A stretch of DNA of 39,751 nt from Chloroflexota bacterium (lineage in GTDB: Bacteria; Chloroflexota; Chloroflexia; Chloroflexales; Roseiflexaceae), in NCBI GenBank assembly GCA_013388755.1, contig JACAEQ010000084.1, forward strand, positions 1 through 39,751, written 5' to 3'. The translations under genes and the position numbers were made by a program. Under the pieces are notes generated by a model, which saw nothing but the letters and a program-made list of their open reading frames with translations, was not told the DNA's origin and did not search any database. Shown here in pieces: positions 4,899-36,295 of the stretch (within the stretch, counting starts at the first letter, position 1; each line of letters opens with the position of its first letter).

Positions 4899-6101
4899 TC
4901 ATTGCCGTCCAGGCCACCGCTCCAGTTCAGCCAGCGCCGCATCAATTGCCTGCGCCAGCGATGCGGCACTGTCAACGCCACCCTGCGCCAAGGTCGCCGT
5001 ACCACCGCCGCGCCCGCCGGACACCGCCAGCGCCGCGCGCAACAACGCCGCACAGTCAACACCGAGCGTCGCAGTGGCAGCGAGAACCAGTTGCGTCTTC
5101 GCACCCGTCACCCCGATGATCGCCAGACACCCGGCATCGGCCAGTGCCGTGGCCAGCGCGCGCCCATCCGCCACCGTCCCCTCGATGACCTGCCGCACCA
5201 CCGGTATGCCGCCCACGCGCGCCGCCCCGGCGGCAAGCTCGCGCGCCGCGTAACCACGTAGCCGTTCATGCGCAACCTCCAGCCCCTTGCGCGCCGCCTC
5301 TTCCGCAGCGCGCAGTCGCGCCAGAGCCACGTCCAGTTCGCCCGTGCCGCAGCTCAGTGTGGCAGCCAGGCGCCCCAGCGCAGCATTCTTCCAGCGCAGG
5401 TCGCGTAAGGCGCGCCCACCACACACGAACTCGACACGTATTGTCGCGCCACGCCGTTCCCAGCGGCGGATATGGACGATCCCCACGCCACCGGTGGAAC
5501 GCGGATGCGTCCCGCCGCATGCCGAATGGTCAAAATCCGGCACCGATACAACGCGCACCGCTCCGTTGACCACCGGTGGCTTGCGCAGCGCCAGGGACGA
5601 TAACTCCTCGGCGGTGACGAACCGCGCCAGCACCGGGCGGTCTTCCCAGACAACCGCGTTCACCACATCCTCGACCGTCGCCGCCTGCCGATCGTCCAGT
5701 GTCGCTGTCGCCAGATCAATGGTTGACGCCGTGCCGCCAAGGTGAAATGATACGGTTGGTATGCCATAGCAGTGCTCGAAGCTGGCCGAGAGCAGGTGCT
5801 GGCCAAGGTGCTGTTGCATATGGTCGAAGCGCCGATCCCAGTCAATAGTGCCTTCAATAGTGTCATCGGGTAACTCGGCGGCAAGCATATGCCAGACCAG
5901 GTCGCCATCGGCCTGCACATCAACCACGCCGATACCGTTGAGAGTTCCGCCATCAGCCGGCTGGCCGCCACCCTCGGGGTAGAATGCGCTCTGATCGAGC
6001 GCAACGGCAGGATGGCCGTGGCGCACGTCGCGCGCCACGACCCGCGCACTAAAGCTACGCAGGTAAGGATCGGCGAAGTACAGACGTTCAGTAAACAGCA
6101 T
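4899..6101 (-). CDS. Alanyl-tRNA editing protein AlaX (long form)
   Basis: This 400-residue protein is homologous to the editing and C-terminal parts of alanyl-tRNA synthetase. It is expected to hydrolyse Ser- or Gly-tRNA(Ala) in trans in the cytoplasm. The zinc and catalytic motif is present: H98 and H102 (HLGQH), with C195 and H199 in SACGGTH. An N-terminal beta-barrel segment contains SAFYPEGGGQPADGG (38-52). From about residue 240 a coiled region leads into a DHHA1-type C-terminus with a GGGRGG-like motif, as in the AlaX-L class. The start is placed at 6101 because a longer in-frame start at 6134 falls inside the terminator hairpin of the upstream gene. Only a weak ribosome site precedes the ATG. 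It lies downstream of the blue copper gene but is separated from it by that terminator. Confidence 0.9.
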   Translation of the reverse strand: MLFTERLYFADPYLRSFSARVVARDVRHGHPAVALDQSAFYPEGGGQPADGGTLNGIGVVDVQADGDLVWHMLAAELPDDTIEGTIDWDRRFDHMQQHLGQHLLSASFEHCYGIPTVSFHLGGTASTIDLATATLDDRQAATVEDVVNAVVWEDRPVLARFVTAEELSSLALRKPPVVNGAVRVVSVPDFDHSACGGTHPRSTGGVGIVHIRRWERRGATIRVEFVCGGRALRDLRWKNAALGRLAATLSCGTGELDVALARLRAAEEAARKGLEVAHERLRGYAARELAAGAARVGGIPVVRQVIEGTVADGRALATALADAGCLAIIGVTGAKTQLVLAATATLGVDCAALLRAALAVSGGRGGGTATLAQGGVDSAASLAQAIDAALAELERWPGRQ

Positions 6102-6117
6102 GGCGCATCCTGAACAA

Positions 6118-6149
6118 GAAAGAGCACGAGGCAATCCTCGTGCTCTTTC
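6118..6149 (-). terminator. Rho-independent terminator after the blue copper gene
   Basis: A perfect 14-bp inverted repeat (GAAAGAGCACGAGG and its complement) surrounds a 4-nt loop. On the minus strand it is followed by a T-rich stretch (TTGTT). It lies 22 bp beyond the stop of the blue copper gene and just ahead of alaX. Confidence 0.85.
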
Positions 6150-6170
6150 GAGAAACGACCCGTGTAGCGC

Positions 6171-31316: not shown

Positions 31317-32078
31317 TTATTGAAGCATAATCGCTTCACCACTGATTGTTGCGCCATCCGGACCGGCGAGGCGCAGCGCTGCCACCGCAACTTCCTCAGG
31401 AGAAATGGACCGCTGCTGGCCACCACGCGCGAGCAATGCCGCGCGGGCCTCATCACGCGAGCGGCCCGTTTTCTCGACCAGGGCATCAATCGCGCCGGCC
31501 ATCATATCCGTCTCGACCCAGGCAGGACAGATCGCATTAGCGGTGATATGGTAGCGCTGCAATTCAAGCGCCAGCGAGCGCGTCAAGCCGAGCAAGCCAT
31601 GCTTGGCGGCGCTGTAAGCGACAGAGAACGGCATCCCGACGACCGCAGCCATCGAGGCAATATTGATGATCCGGCCACCACCATGATCGATCATGGTCGG
31701 AACCACCGCCTTGCAGCAATAGTATGCGCCATGCAGGTTCACACGCACGACCTGATCCCAGAGCGCATCGTCAGTATCAGCGAACCTGGCACTATACGTG
31801 ACGCCGGCATTGTTCACCAGGATGTCACACGGCCCGAGCGCCGCACGTGCAGTGTCGAAGGCCGCATAGACCTGCGCCGCATCGGCAACATCACAGACAA
31901 CGGCCACGGCACGCCCGCCACGCGCGGCGATTGTTGCACACACAGCATCAAGTGCCGCCCGATTGCGCCCGGCAACAGCAACTGCCGCGCCAGCGCCGGC
32001 AAAGGTCAGCGCGATTGCCTTACCGATACCGCGCCCACCACCGGTGACAACTGCCATTTTCCCGTTGAGTGTGCTCAT
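31317..32078 (-). CDS. Short-chain dehydrogenase/reductase (FabG-like)
   Basis: This 253-residue classical SDR has the nucleotide-binding TGGGRGIG at 12-19, NNAG at 89-92 and the catalytic Ser142, Tyr155 and Lys159 (YSAAK). It closes with the C-terminal pattern ISGEAIMLQ, similar to FabG or 3-hydroxybutyrate/gluconate dehydrogenases. The substrate is unclear. The start is placed at 32078, where AAAGGA lies 7 nt upstream; ATG at 32081 and GTG at 32084 are close alternatives. It is the first gene of a minus-strand pair with purL, from a clear promoter at 32104-32132. The pairing with a purine gene has no obvious metabolic reason. Confidence 0.9.
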   Translation of the reverse strand: MSTLNGKMAVVTGGGRGIGKAIALTFAGAGAAVAVAGRNRAALDAVCATIAARGGRAVAVVCDVADAAQVYAAFDTARAALGPCDILVNNAGVTYSARFADTDDALWDQVVRVNLHGAYYCCKAVVPTMIDHGGGRIINIASMAAVVGMPFSVAYSAAKHGLLGLTRSLALELQRYHITANAICPAWVETDMMAGAIDALVEKTGRSRDEARAALLARGGQQRSISPEEVAVAALRLAGPDGATISGEAIMLQ

Positions 32079-32103
32079 CATCACATCCTTTCATCGCGCC
32101 CGT

Positions 32104-32132
32104 AGTCTACCGCAGCGGCACGGCGCGGTCAA
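32104..32132 (-). promoter_or_regulatory. Promoter of the SDR-purL unit, inside a 36-bp dyad
   Basis: On the minus strand TTGACC (32132-32127) and TAGACT (32109-32104) have a 17-bp spacer; the start is near 32097. A dyad at 32114-32149 (AGCGGCA-c-GGCGCG ... CGCGCC-a-TGCCGCT) covers the spacer and -35 box. Confidence 0.7.
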
Positions 32133-32191
32133 GCGCGCGCCATGCCGCTAAATGCACAGCAAACTGGAAGGAAACGCACCAGATTAAGGGC

Positions 32192-32220
32192 TTGTAAAGA
32201 AGCAGCAGGAGGAGTATACT
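32192..32220 (+). promoter_or_regulatory. Promoter of the structured RNA candidate
   Basis: TTGTAA (32192-32197) and TATACT (32215-32220) are separated by 17 bp. Transcription would begin near 32227, more than 550 bp before the next coding sequence. Confidence 0.65.
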
Positions 32221-32226
32221 ATTCCT

Positions 32227-32590
32227 ACCGCCCTGGAAGAGTAACTCAGCAAAGGGCACGTACCTGAATAGCATGACACACCCGCACCAGGCAAGCGATA
32301 GTTTACCCAAAGCTATCGTAAGCTGAGGGAAACGAGAGGTTTTGGATCTGCTCGGGGAGACCAGCAAGTACGCGCGGTTGAGAGGTCAGGAGACCACCGT
32401 TGCGGTAGGAGCAAGGTGCGGCGCTTCGAGATAATCACAGTATACGCAAGTATACTCCGTTATCTCAGAGGCCAGTGATGCCGGAACACTCAATGGCAAC
32501 ATTGAAAGTAACGGAGCAACTGGCTGAAGCAGTCAAGCTGAACAGATGCGCAGCAGGCTGAGTGAAAGAAAACCAGGGCGTCCCCTTTTT
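32227..32590 (+). ncRNA. Candidate structured non-coding RNA, class unknown
   Basis: No protein is plausible in 32098-32785. The predicted transcript contains many nested helices. These include CGATAG/CTATCG (32296-32318); CGGT plus GGTC paired with GACC plus ACCG (32375-32399, AGGA loop); GAGATAA-x4-AGTATAC closed by a GCAA tetraloop (32428-32466); and GCCAGT...TGCCG...CAATG closed by another GCAA tetraloop and paired back to ACTGGC (32471-32524). An outer helix pairs GCCCTGG near 32231 with CCAGGC near 32287. A short GGG/CCC hairpin followed by TTTTT at 32586-32590 may end it. It is not recognisable as tmRNA, RNase P RNA, SRP RNA or 6S RNA. An IscB-type omega (HEARO-like) RNA, an intron remnant or a new class are all open. 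Confidence 0.5.
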
Positions 32591-32596
32591 CTGTCA

Positions 32597-32632
32597 CGAG
32601 ACCTCGTGGATCAGGCGATCCGCGAGGTCTCG
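32597..32632. other. Perfect 16-bp hairpin
   Basis: A 16-bp stem with one T.G pair (CGAGACCTCGTGGATC paired with GATCCGCGAGGTCTCG) closes an AGGC loop. It follows the T run at the end of the RNA candidate. It may be a second transcription barrier or a protein-binding dyad; no T run follows on either strand. The remaining stretch 32633-32769 shows nothing recognisable. Confidence 0.6.
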
Positions 32633-32769: not shown

Positions 32770-32778
32770 TGCTAGAAT
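32770..32778 (+). promoter_or_regulatory. Extended -10 promoter giving a leaderless mRNA
   Basis: TGC followed by TAGAAT (32773-32778) is an extended -10 box whose expected start site (32785/32786) coincides with the ATG of the next gene. No good -35 box is seen. Confidence 0.45.
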
Positions 32779-32785
32779 TGAAGCG

Positions 32786-35700
32786 ATGACCACACGCGCC
32801 AGCAATACAACATCGGTCACCGATGCCACGCGCGTTGCGGCGCCGCCACTCCCCGGCGGCGTCTGGGCCGCGCTCCAGCGGCGTGCTGCCGATCCCACCA
32901 CAGGTGCGGCGCATGTGTACACGGCCCTGGCAGCACATAGCGCCGGGGTATCACGCGCGACAGACATCCTCGCAGCACTGCAGATGCGTGTGGACCCCGC
33001 GCAGTACCGGCCGCATGCCATCCCTGATGTCGCTGAGGAACCTATCCGCGAAGGCGACCAGACGATCTACATCGTACGTAGCCCGCAGGGCAACTATCTG
33101 CGCCTGACCGAAGCGCAACGTGATATCTGGCGCGCCATGGATGGCAACCGCACCGTCGCCGACCTCGGCATCGCCGCGTTCCACAGCCGCGGCTTGATCC
33201 TGCCCATCGGCGAACTCGTAGCCGGTCTCAAAACCGAAGGGTTGCTGCGCGACCGGCCAGTCGGCGTCTACCGCGCGATTGGCGAGGCGTTGCACAGGGG
33301 GACCGCCGGGACCTGGGGGAGGCGCTTGCGGCGCGCACTCACCGGCGCAACGCTGGCCATTCCGAATATTGATGCACTCTATGGTGCAATCTACCGGGGC
33401 GGCGGGCGGCTCTTTTTCACCCTGCCGTTTGCCGTCATCGCGATTGCGATCGTAATCGCCGGCATCATCGCATTCGGGTTCGCCCTCGCAAGCGGCACCG
33501 ACACGTACCAGATTATCAGGCTCGATGGGTCGGTTACACGCGGATTGGCAGCACTCTGGGCAGTGACATTGCTGTCGTTTGTATTGCACGAGAGCGCGCA
33601 CGCACTGGCCGTGAAGCATGCCGGTCGTACCCTCGCTGGCGGCGGTGTCATGCTATACTATGGCCTTCCTGCCGCATTCGTGGACACCAGCGATATCTGG
33701 CGCTCGCCACGCCGGGCGCGGATCGCGGTTTCGGTGGCCGGGCCAGCGGCGGATCTCCTGGTTGGCAGCCTCGCCGCCATTGTTGCCTTTGCTCTACCTG
33801 ATACCGTCGCCGGTTCGATTGCCTACAAACTCGCCTTTACCAGCTTTGTGTCCAGCGTCTTCAATCTCAACCCGCTACTCGAACTCGACGGGTACTATAT
33901 TCTGGTCGATCTGCTGCGCATGCCCGATCTGCGCCGCACAGCACTGGCATATGTGCGCGGGCCACTCTGGGAGAAACTGGGTGCGCGCCTGCTCGCGCCA
34001 GGCACAAAACGATCGCACCGGAAAGGCGCGCAGGCGAACGCCACAACTGGCCCACTCCATGAGCGCAGCCTGCCCTTTTCGCGAGAAGAACGCATCTACG
34101 CAGTGTATGGCCTGGCAACCGTCACCTACACCGCGCTGGCGATCGTCGCGGCGGCATGGTTCTGGCAACGCCAGATCCTTGCCCCCGCGCTTGAACTCTT
34201 ACCTGGCGCCTGGTGGCAGCGGCTCATAGGTGCCCTGCTCATTCTGGTGGTTGTTCTGCCGGCGCTGGCGGCGGTCATTGTCACCTGCTGGGAAATTGCG
34301 CAGGTCACGGCCGGCTGGCTGGTCAACCGCGGGTATGGCCGGCGACCCGGTCTGCTGGCGTCTGTCGGAGTGCTGCTGGCACTGGTGGCAGCGCTGGCGG
34401 CGGCGGCGATCGAGGCGAGCGCCTGGAGCCGGGCAGCGCTGCTGTTCGGGCCGTTCCTGTGGGGGGGCGCGTTGGGCGCCCTGCTTGCGATCCGGCCCTA
34501 CTACCGCGGTGCAGCAATCTACCCGGCGGTGACGGCACTGATCGCAACGACAGTGCTGGCCGGGATCGCTGGAATCGCGCGCGCCCTGCCGGCGCCCGCC
34601 ATGGTGTGGATTGTTCTTGATGGCCTGGCATTCGCTGGCCTGCTGCTGGCCGGCTTCACCGCGTTGCTCGATGTCGATCTGCGCGCCGCGCCGGCACGCG
34701 AATTGCTCGCAACGGCCGCGCTCCTGATGGCAGCCTTCGTCACCGGCGGCACGGCACTCTTCAGCGCCTCTTCGGTTCACCCGGCGGCAAGCTCGATCGC
34801 ACTGCTGGCCATGGCTGCGCCCGCCTATTTCGGCGCACTGGCCCTGGCGCTCCTGCTACAACATCTGTTCGGGCTGGCAGACTCGCGGCTTATGTGGTCC
34901 TGGGCGCTGCTCTGGCTCGGCGCGCTGGTGCAGACCATCGGTTACATCGTGGATCTGCGCGGCCAGGGACTCGCGTTCGATGTCCTGGGTTCAGGCCTCT
35001 GGGCGGCAGCATGGCTGGTACACCTGGCAACGCTCCGGCACCTGGCGGTAAGCGAACTCCACTGGGATCATGAAACGAGCCTGAACGAGAGCGCACGCCT
35101 GGCGCGCGCGTTCCAGCTCACCTATCGCGGATGTTATCAACTGCTGCATTCCGCCTATGGCGAGCGCCGCGCGCGTGCCCTCGATGATCGGATGGATGTT
35201 CTGGCAGCCACCGCCGACTGGGACGTGACACTGGATCATGAGCGCGCGCGGATCGGGCAACTGGTCCAGACGCTGCCGGTAGATCAGCAGGGTGCGCGCT
35301 TCGCTGAAGTGCTGCGCTACACTGTGGCGGAAATTGAGCAGATTGCGGGTGAAGCATTCGCGCGGCGCTGCATTCAGGCCGCCTACGATGCGCTACCCTG
35401 GCCGGAACGCGAGGCGGCCGGCCGGCTCTGCTTCCCCGACACGCCATGGGCGCGCGAATTGTCGAGTTCGTTCGGCGATGTGCGCGCGGCGCGACTACGG
35501 TTGCTCCGGCAGGTTGATGTGTTCCTGGGTTGCGATGATGACGAACTGGAAGCACTGTCGCACAGTATCAGCGAACGTGTCTACGCTGCCGGCGAGACCG
35601 TGATGGCGGCCGGCGCTGCCGCACCAGGGATCTGGATCATCGAAGCGGGTGAGGTGGCCGCGCGGCGTGGTGGGCGCATGATCGCCGAGCTTCACCGCGG

Positions 35701-36295
35701 CGACGCGCTCGGCGCGGAGGAACTGCTGCGCGGTGAACCTCTCGCCCATACCTATCGGGCGACCATGACATCCAACCTGCTCTACCTGCCGGCAGAGGAG
35801 TTCTTCCGCCTGGTAGCGGACCGCGCGCCACATGCAGCGGCAGGCCTCGAATCCGCCGAGGTGCTGCGTCTGCTCGAACGTGTGTCGCTTTTCAGTGATC
35901 TGCCGCGCAACACGTTGCGCGGCCTGGCAGCGATAACCGAACAGCGCAGCTACAGCGCGCGCCGGCTGATTGTGCGCCAGGGCGAGCCGAGCGGAACGTT
36001 CTTTATCATTCGCACTGGCACGGCTGCTGTGGTCGTGCGCGAACCGGCTGAGTGTGGCCAGCCGGCCCGTGTGCGTCCCGTGGCCCGCCTCGGGCCACAG
36101 GAGTTCTTCGGCGAACTCGAACTCCTGCGGAACACGCCGCCGGTGGCAAGCGTCGTGGCGATCACGCCGCTCACCACACTGGCACTGCCGCACGCCGCGA
36201 TCCACGCACTGGTGCTGGGCGACGGGCACGTTTCACGCAGCCTGGAGCAAGTTGGCACCGGGCGGCTGAAAGCGCTGGTAGGAACCGGCAACTGA
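32786..36295 (+). CDS. PqqD-like / M50 site-2-protease-like / double cyclic-nucleotide-binding fusion membrane protein
   Basis: This 1169-residue protein has four parts. Residues about 90-160 resemble PqqD-type peptide-binding winged-helix domains (YLRLTEAQRDIWRAMDGNRTVADLG). Residues about 205-380 form an M50-like intramembrane metalloprotease with zinc motif H268-E269-S-A-H272 (LLSFVLHESAHALAVKHAG) and the second motif NLNPLLELDGYY (Asp368). About 430-780 hold some eight to ten further membrane helices. About 905-1150 are two cyclic-nucleotide-binding domains (LHRGDALGAEELLRGEPLAHTYRA and RLGPQEFFGELELLRNTPPVASVVA). The second has the better phosphate-binding cassette (FGELELL...PVASV). The protein may cut a membrane peptide under control of cAMP or another ligand. 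The PqqD plus M50 pairing recalls peptide-export proteases of bacteriocin systems, but no peptide gene or exporter is visible. Confidence 0.85.
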   Translation: MTTRASNTTSVTDATRVAAPPLPGGVWAALQRRAADPTTGAAHVYTALAAHSAGVSRATDILAALQMRVDPAQYRPHAIPDVAEEPIREGDQTIYIVRSPQGNYLRLTEAQRDIWRAMDGNRTVADLGIAAFHSRGLILPIGELVAGLKTEGLLRDRPVGVYRAIGEALHRGTAGTWGRRLRRALTGATLAIPNIDALYGAIYRGGGRLFFTLPFAVIAIAIVIAGIIAFGFALASGTDTYQIIRLDGSVTRGLAALWAVTLLSFVLHESAHALAVKHAGRTLAGGGVMLYYGLPAAFVDTSDIWRSPRRARIAVSVAGPAADLLVGSLAAIVAFALPDTVAGSIAYKLAFTSFVSSVFNLNPLLELDGYYILVDLLRMPDLRRTALAYVRGPLWEKLGARLLAPGTKRSHRKGAQANATTGPLHERSLPFSREERIYAVYGLATVTYTALAIVAAAWFWQRQILAPALELLPGAWWQRLIGALLILVVVLPALAAVIVTCWEIAQVTAGWLVNRGYGRRPGLLASVGVLLALVAALAAAAIEASAWSRAALLFGPFLWGGALGALLAIRPYYRGAAIYPAVTALIATTVLAGIAGIARALPAPAMVWIVLDGLAFAGLLLAGFTALLDVDLRAAPARELLATAALLMAAFVTGGTALFSASSVHPAASSIALLAMAAPAYFGALALALLLQHLFGLADSRLMWSWALLWLGALVQTIGYIVDLRGQGLAFDVLGSGLWAAAWLVHLATLRHLAVSELHWDHETSLNESARLARAFQLTYRGCYQLLHSAYGERRARALDDRMDVLAATADWDVTLDHERARIGQLVQTLPVDQQGARFAEVLRYTVAEIEQIAGEAFARRCIQAAYDALPWPEREAAGRLCFPDTPWARELSSSFGDVRAARLRLLRQVDVFLGCDDDELEALSHSISERVYAAGETVMAAGAAAPGIWIIEAGEVAARRGGRMIAELHRGDALGAEELLRGEPLAHTYRATMTSNLLYLPAEEFFRLVADRAPHAAAGLESAEVLRLLERVSLFSDLPRNTLRGLAAITEQRSYSARRLIVRQGEPSGTFFIIRTGTAAVVVREPAECGQPARVRPVARLGPQEFFGELELLRNTPPVASVVAITPLTTLALPHAAIHALVLGDGHVSRSLEQVGTGRLKALVGTGN

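What the first reader, a model, noticed from the sequence alone, without database searches (positions are those of the whole stretch)
32192..32590. Promoter-driven structured RNA candidate in a 0.7 kb gap
A 17-bp-spaced promoter with no gene behind it is followed by about 360 nt with several nested helices, two closed by GCAA tetraloops, and a T run at the end. The density of self-complementarity is far above the surrounding DNA. It does not fit the common housekeeping RNAs, so it may be an undescribed class, an orphan omega RNA or an intron relic.
Basis: partly seen in the sequence, partly recalled or inferred. Interest (0 to 1): 0.78.

Follow-up and report, generated by a model that had tools for sequence, protein, structure and literature searches.

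The report
Undescribed standalone folded RNA in Roseiflexaceae
Between two ordinary genes of a Roseiflexus-like bacterium lies a gene for a roughly 360-letter folded RNA with its own promoter, kept by natural selection in seven related species, matching no catalogued RNA family and of unknown function.

Summary
Window 32227-32590 (+) is the most self-structured of 218 equal-length segments sampled along the window (z about -7). Orthologues sit at the same place in all six Roseiflexus genomes held, and one covariance model matches all seven species full length. Of 111 consensus pairs, 25 carry double-sided compensatory changes and 97.9% of cells pair. The -35 and -10 boxes are invariant at 17-nt spacing while the spacer drifts. 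G-U versus A-C counts (68:3) put the RNA on the + strand.

It is not a known family: no Rfam hit passes even a loose E-value. RNase P RNA, tmRNA and SRP RNA lie elsewhere in this genome, and 6S lies elsewhere in a Roseiflexus relative. It is not a leader of the downstream M50 peptidase gene, which has its own conserved extended -10 next to its ATG, after an unconserved gap. No mobile element or RNA-guided nuclease was found beside it.

Best reading: a new, narrowly distributed class of large standalone ncRNA, probably a trans-acting ribonucleoprotein scaffold with a conserved 5' hairpin that competes with the closing helix. Existence and structure are shown by comparison. Transcription and function are inferred.

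The parts
32152..32191 (+). conserved block upstream of the RNA promoter (TGCACAGCAAACTG...GATTAAGGGC), candidate UP element or regulator site
   Evidence: 75% identical own vs others and 90% among the others, 26 of 40 columns invariant; an 18-nt piece matches exactly (0 mismatches) only at this locus in 5 Roseiflexus genomes; every match elsewhere in the 7 genomes has 2 mismatches
32192..32220 (+). sigma70-type promoter TTGTAA - 17 nt - TATACT
   Evidence: both boxes and the spacing invariant in 7 of 7 genomes, spacer sequence not
32227..32590 (+). structured noncoding RNA, about 355-365 nt (predicted 5' end about 32227, 3' end at the T run)
   Evidence: model R1 matches 32221-32589
32229..32236 (+). 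closing helix P1, 5' strand (pairs with 32573-32580)
   Evidence: one double-sided change, 6 invariant pairs
32573..32580 (+). closing helix P1, 3' strand, followed by the T run 32586-32590
32230..32257 (+). alternative 5' hairpin GCCCU/AGGGC, mutually exclusive with P1
   Evidence: predicted in the 45-nt prefix of all 7 sequences (-7.7 to -12.8 kcal/mol) and replaced by P1 in the full RNA
32282..32421 (+). central domain closed by an 11-bp helix, with three hairpins (32295-32319, 32322-32365, 32371-32404); holds the long invariant, purine-rich stretch
   Evidence: submodel R2 finds it alone
32423..32530 (+). 3' domain: GNRA-capped hairpin 32428-32466 and long arm 32470-32525, the helices richest in compensatory changes
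   Evidence: helices 12-17
32104..32132 (-). divergent promoter of the SDR gene, TTGACC - 17 nt - TAGACT
   Evidence: 22 of 31 columns invariant and spacing 17 in 7 of 7 genomes
31317..32084 (-). SDR (short-chain dehydrogenase) gene, conserved left neighbour
32597..32632 (+). 16-bp perfect hairpin after the RNA (-33 kcal/mol), candidate 3' boundary or terminator in this genome only
   Evidence: not aligned in relatives
32770..32786 (+). extended -10 TGCTAGAAT, 7 nt before the ATG of the M50 gene (predicted leaderless promoter)
   Evidence: TGCTAGAAT with a 7-8 nt gap to ATG in 6 of 6 genomes where the gene start is present
32786..36295 (+). M50-like peptidase with cyclic-nucleotide-binding domains, conserved right neighbour, separately promoted

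Best explanation
This is an independently transcribed, multi-domain structured noncoding RNA of about 360 nt, found so far only in Roseiflexus and the genus of the window. Shown by comparison: a conserved promoter lies just before it, its 5' and 3' ends close the molecule through P1, and selection preserves its helices. Inferred: transcription starts at about 32227; while the RNA is being made, a 5' hairpin (GCCCU/AGGGC) holds the 5' strand of P1 until the 3' end is made; P1 then closes and the two large domains pack, possibly through the GNRA-capped arm of the 3' domain. The nearly invariant purine-rich core of the central domain then acts in trans, most likely as the binding platform of a ribonucleoprotein, in the manner of 6S- or OLE-type RNAs, rather than as a leader, guide or intron.
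For: Orthologues at the same place (SDR gene on one side; M50 gene on the other in 6 of 6 genomes where it can be seen) in all 6 Roseiflexus genomes held. 25 of 111 pairs with double-sided changes against 10.8 +/- 2.0 in shuffles and at most 5 in slid structures; 97.9% of cells paired against 30-38% in slid structures. 68 G-U against 3 A-C cells fix the + strand. Invariant promoter boxes with a drifting spacer of fixed length. Sequence conservation falls away right after P1: 70% own vs others inside the RNA, 40% just after it, 12% in the rest of the downstream gap. One copy per genome. No small ORF shared by all seven. The downstream gene has its own conserved extended -10. No Rfam match. Housekeeping RNAs located elsewhere.
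Against: No transcript data were available. The 3' end is not a canonical terminator. Only 7 sequences were compared, with limited phylogenetic spread (69-95% identical), and most pairs in the central domain are invariant and so neither for nor against its fold. The trans-acting RNP role rests on analogy, and no protein partner is known. The 5' hairpin alternative is thermodynamic prediction only.
Confidence: 0.72

Rival explanations
1. It is a cis-acting leader (riboswitch or attenuator) of the M50/cNMP-domain gene on the same strand, with closing helix P1 plus T run as terminator and the 5' hairpin as antiterminator.
For: Same strand and same downstream gene in all 6 genomes that can be checked; mutually exclusive 5' pairings in all 7; a T run after P1.
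Against: The M50 gene has its own invariant extended -10 (TGCTAGAAT) 7-8 nt before its ATG. The distance between the RNA -10 and the M50 -10 varies from 411 to 779 nt with no conserved sequence after P1. The T run is poor in relatives. In three other genera the M50 gene exists without the RNA, preceded closely or overlapped by another ORF.
Confidence: 0.1
2. It is a trans-acting base-pairing regulatory sRNA or sponge that works through exposed loops rather than as an RNP scaffold.
For: Own regulated-looking promoter with a conserved upstream block; several invariant exposed stretches.
Against: Far larger and more elaborately folded than typical base-pairing sRNAs; most of the length is held in helices under compensatory selection.
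Confidence: 0.15
3. It is a relic of a mobile element: an orphan omega/HEARO RNA, a retron ncRNA or an intron.
For: Size similar to HEARO and introns; GNRA loops.
Against: No family match at E up to 10. No nuclease, RT or transposase found among the neighbours examined. Fixed orthologous position and invariant promoter; no match in phage, plasmid or viral collections; compensatory changes show an intact, selected molecule rather than a relic.
Confidence: 0.02
4. It is a diverged housekeeping RNA (RNase P, tmRNA, 6S, SRP).
For: Length close to tmRNA or RNase P RNA.
Against: tmRNA (168.7 bits), SRP (50.9 bits) and RNase P RNA (63.8 bits over the specificity region) all lie on other contigs of this genome. 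6S lies elsewhere in the Roseiflexus genome G008 (57.1 bits), which also has this RNA.
Confidence: 0.01

Closest known systems
OLE, ROOL, GOLLD (large ornate bacterial RNAs; cryo-EM in PMC12286853)
   Same: Large, elaborately folded, standalone-type bacterial ncRNA with strong covariation and no obvious mechanism
   Different: About half their size (own knowledge; OLE about 600 nt in PMC12054373); none matched by Rfam models even at E 10; other phyla; no associated protein gene found
6S RNA (RF00013)
   Same: Standalone promoter-driven RNA with joined ends
   Different: 6S is about 185 nt with a central bubble; a separate 6S gene exists in Roseiflexus G008
HEARO/omega RNA of IscB, IsrB and TnpB
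   Same: Similar size to HEARO; dense helices (own knowledge)
   Different: No nuclease beside it, no Rfam match, fixed orthologous locus, own conserved promoter
Chloroflexi-1 RNA motif (RF01698, PMC2864571)
   Same: Structured RNA candidate from the same phylum
   Different: Listed there only from Chloroflexus aggregans; no match to this RNA in the Rfam scan

Membership tests
Bacterial structured noncoding RNA (general kind) | Helices supported by compensatory changes across homologues | tested here: met
   25 of 111 pairs, 97.9% of cells paired
Bacterial structured noncoding RNA (general kind) | Own promoter conserved at fixed spacing | tested here: met
Bacterial structured noncoding RNA (general kind) | Stable transcript of the predicted size | not testable with these tools
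   no RNA-seq available
HEARO/omega RNA | Match to the family covariance model | tested here: not met
   nothing at E up to 10, nothing relevant in the orthologues at E up to 1
HEARO/omega RNA | Adjacent IscB/IsrB/TnpB gene | tested here: not met
   neighbours are SDR, purL-like and M50 genes; ORF lists of three orthologous loci and Pfam of window genes
cis-regulatory leader or riboswitch | Lies within the 5' UTR of the regulated gene | tested here: not met
   M50 gene has its own extended -10 next to the ATG in 6 of 6; unconserved variable gap. Inference from sequence, not a TSS map
RNase P RNA | Is the genome's RNase P RNA | tested here: not met
   another locus on C37 matches RF00010
tmRNA | Is the genome's tmRNA | tested here: not met
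   C102:71371-71739 matches RF00023 over cut-off
SRP RNA | Is the genome's SRP RNA | tested here: not met
   C7:101356-101450 matches RF00169 over cut-off
6S RNA | Match to the 6S model | tested here: not met
   6S elsewhere in G008, none called in the window's own genome
Group I/II intron | Intron model match and flanking exons | tested here: not met
   no intron family at E up to 10; intergenic, promoter directly at the 5' end
OLE/ROOL/GOLLD | Match to the family covariance model | tested here: not met
   one search covered all 4227 Rfam families

The most novel reading that the evidence does not exclude
A new functional class of large bacterial RNA: a lineage-specific ribonucleoprotein core or ribozyme with a co-transcriptional 5' strand exchange, doing a job not covered by any known bacterial RNA.
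Probability: 0.25. Interest if true: 0.85.

Novelty: new variant of a known kind. Interest (0 to 1): 0.58.

Why it matters
Bacterial RNAs of this size and intricacy are few, and several of them remain without a known function. This one adds a compact, well-defined family with a promoter, ends, a consensus fold and a calibrated covariance model, in thermophilic phototrophs whose RNA biology is almost unexplored. It can be probed directly in cultured Roseiflexus or made in vitro. It also shows that raw-sequence reading can find an RNA family absent from Rfam.

Tried and rejected
Known-family identification: Rfam at gathering and loose thresholds on the window and on six orthologues gave only chance-level hits. 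Housekeeping RNAs: located elsewhere. Distant homologues: model R1 over 158 class genomes and 400 phylum genomes, with laxer filters over the family, and the central-domain model R2 over 60 relatives, found only the same 7 loci. The broader genomes were scored with stricter filters, so a diverged relative could be missed. A genome contigs pattern scan hit Roseiflexus or Chloroflexota MAGs plus one Coriobacteriia contig, which is a chance match without the fold. Phage, plasmid and viral collections: nothing. Unfiltered search upstream of M50 genes in three genera without the RNA: noise only, best 11.6 bits. A regulon search with the upstream block found no convincing second site. Coding potential: no small ORF common to all seven, and the antisense ORF 32107-32367 is not evidently conserved. 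Literature: no paper found that describes it; Weinberg 2017 was not held.

Full report
What is there. The 0.7-kb gap between an SDR gene (31317-32084, minus strand) and an M50-like peptidase with cyclic-nucleotide-binding domains (32786-36295, plus strand) holds a promoter, TTGTAA-17-TATACT at 32192-32220, and then about 360 nt that fold to -145.3 kcal/mol (z -5.7). Sampled every 360 nt along both strands, no other segment of the window reaches the z of -7.1 of this one (218 segments). Chance is not an adequate explanation.

Orthologues. A BLAST search over the 26 family genomes held found strong matches only in the window's own genome and six genomes of one other genus. Four of the matching records found independently in genome contigs are titled Roseiflexus (a fifth is titled Chloroflexota bacterium). 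A covariance model of the full RNA (R1, 355 positions, 111 pairs) matches all seven full length (334-417 bits), once each. It matches nothing else convincing in 158 class or 400 phylum genomes, or in the family with laxer filters. The locus is orthologous: the SDR gene lies on the left wherever examined, and the M50 gene lies on the right, same strand, in all six genomes where the contig reaches it.

Selection on structure. On alignment A4, 97.9% of cells form standard pairs (30-38% in slid controls), and 25 pairs in 12 of the 17 helices carry changes on both sides (10.8 +/- 2.0 in shuffles, at most 5 slid). The 3' domain is richest in such changes (helices 13-17). The central domain (32282-32421) is nearly invariant, so its fold is supported mainly by energy and by the closing context. 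In the plus-strand reading there are 68 G-U and 3 A-C cells; on the other strand these would swap, so the plus strand is the RNA. No small open frame is shared by all seven.

Transcription unit (inferred from conservation). Promoter boxes: 13 of 13 columns invariant. Spacer: always 17 nt but 30% identical own vs others. The 40 bp upstream of -35 are 75-90% identical, and an 18-nt piece of that block matches exactly only here. Identity drops to 40% just after the closing helix and to 12-20% beyond. The SDR gene has its own conserved divergent promoter (TTGACC-17-TAGACT). The M50 gene has its own extended -10, TGCTAGAAT, 7-8 nt before its ATG in six of six, which suggests a leaderless mRNA. Three promoters therefore flank or drive three units, and the RNA is a unit of its own. 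The distance between the RNA and M50 -10 boxes varies from 411 to 779 nt. In three other genera of the family the M50 gene is closely preceded or overlapped by a different ORF, without the RNA (model search there gave only noise).

A conserved alternative pairing. The 5' strand of the closing helix (GCCCU) can pair with an invariant AGGGC about 20 nt downstream. Predicted folds of the 45-nt prefix use this hairpin in all seven sequences, and the full RNA uses the closing helix instead in all seven. This is consistent with a co-transcriptional hold-and-release of the 5' end, or with a switch. It is prediction only, and the short hairpin alone is not exceptional against shuffles (z -1.2).

What it is not. 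No Rfam family matches, even loosely, in the window or the orthologues. RNase P RNA, tmRNA and SRP RNA are on other contigs of the same genome, and 6S is elsewhere in Roseiflexus G008. Viral contigs (a pattern scan) and phage and plasmid collections (blastn) gave no match. Nothing supports an omega RNA, retron or intron: neighbours examined are chromosomal metabolic and regulatory genes, and the RNA is neither repeated nor mobile.

Interpretation. The evidence settles, short of a transcript, that this is a real, selected, independently promoted structured RNA family absent from Rfam. What it does is open. Size, closure, an invariant core and a GNRA-capped arm favour a trans-acting scaffold for a protein complex. 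A base-pairing regulator is the next option, and a leader of the M50 gene the third. As a kind it belongs with the large standalone bacterial RNAs, as a new family of narrow distribution. The broad homology searches used stricter filters and could miss diverged relatives, and no expression data were available.

Noticed in passing
window 32770-32786 and orthologues: The M50/cNMP gene appears to be leaderless: an invariant extended -10 (TGCTAGAAT) sits 7-8 nt before the ATG in 6 of 6 genomes.
   Followed up: partly
window 32597-32632: A 16-bp perfect hairpin with a 4-nt loop (-33 kcal/mol) directly after the RNA's T run, not found in the aligned relatives; possibly a terminator or an inserted repeat.
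   Followed up: partly
L031 1501-1601 (G000 contig C37): RNase P RNA of this genome is recognised by Rfam only over the specificity region, below the gathering score; Bcheck (PMC2996960) reports the same partial detection for Roseiflexus.
   Followed up: partly
G000 vs G008: A 6S RNA is called in the Roseiflexus genome G008 but not in the window's own genome.
   Followed up: no
window 5788-6147: Second most structured segment of the window (z about -5 on + and -4 on -); it includes a terminator-like hairpin at about 6117-6150 between converging genes and looks ordinary.
   Followed up: partly
window 32152-32191: Conserved block upstream of the RNA promoter with three TGCA-like motifs in relatives (TGCACA, CTGCAT, TTGCAT), suggestive of a regulator site.
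   Followed up: partly
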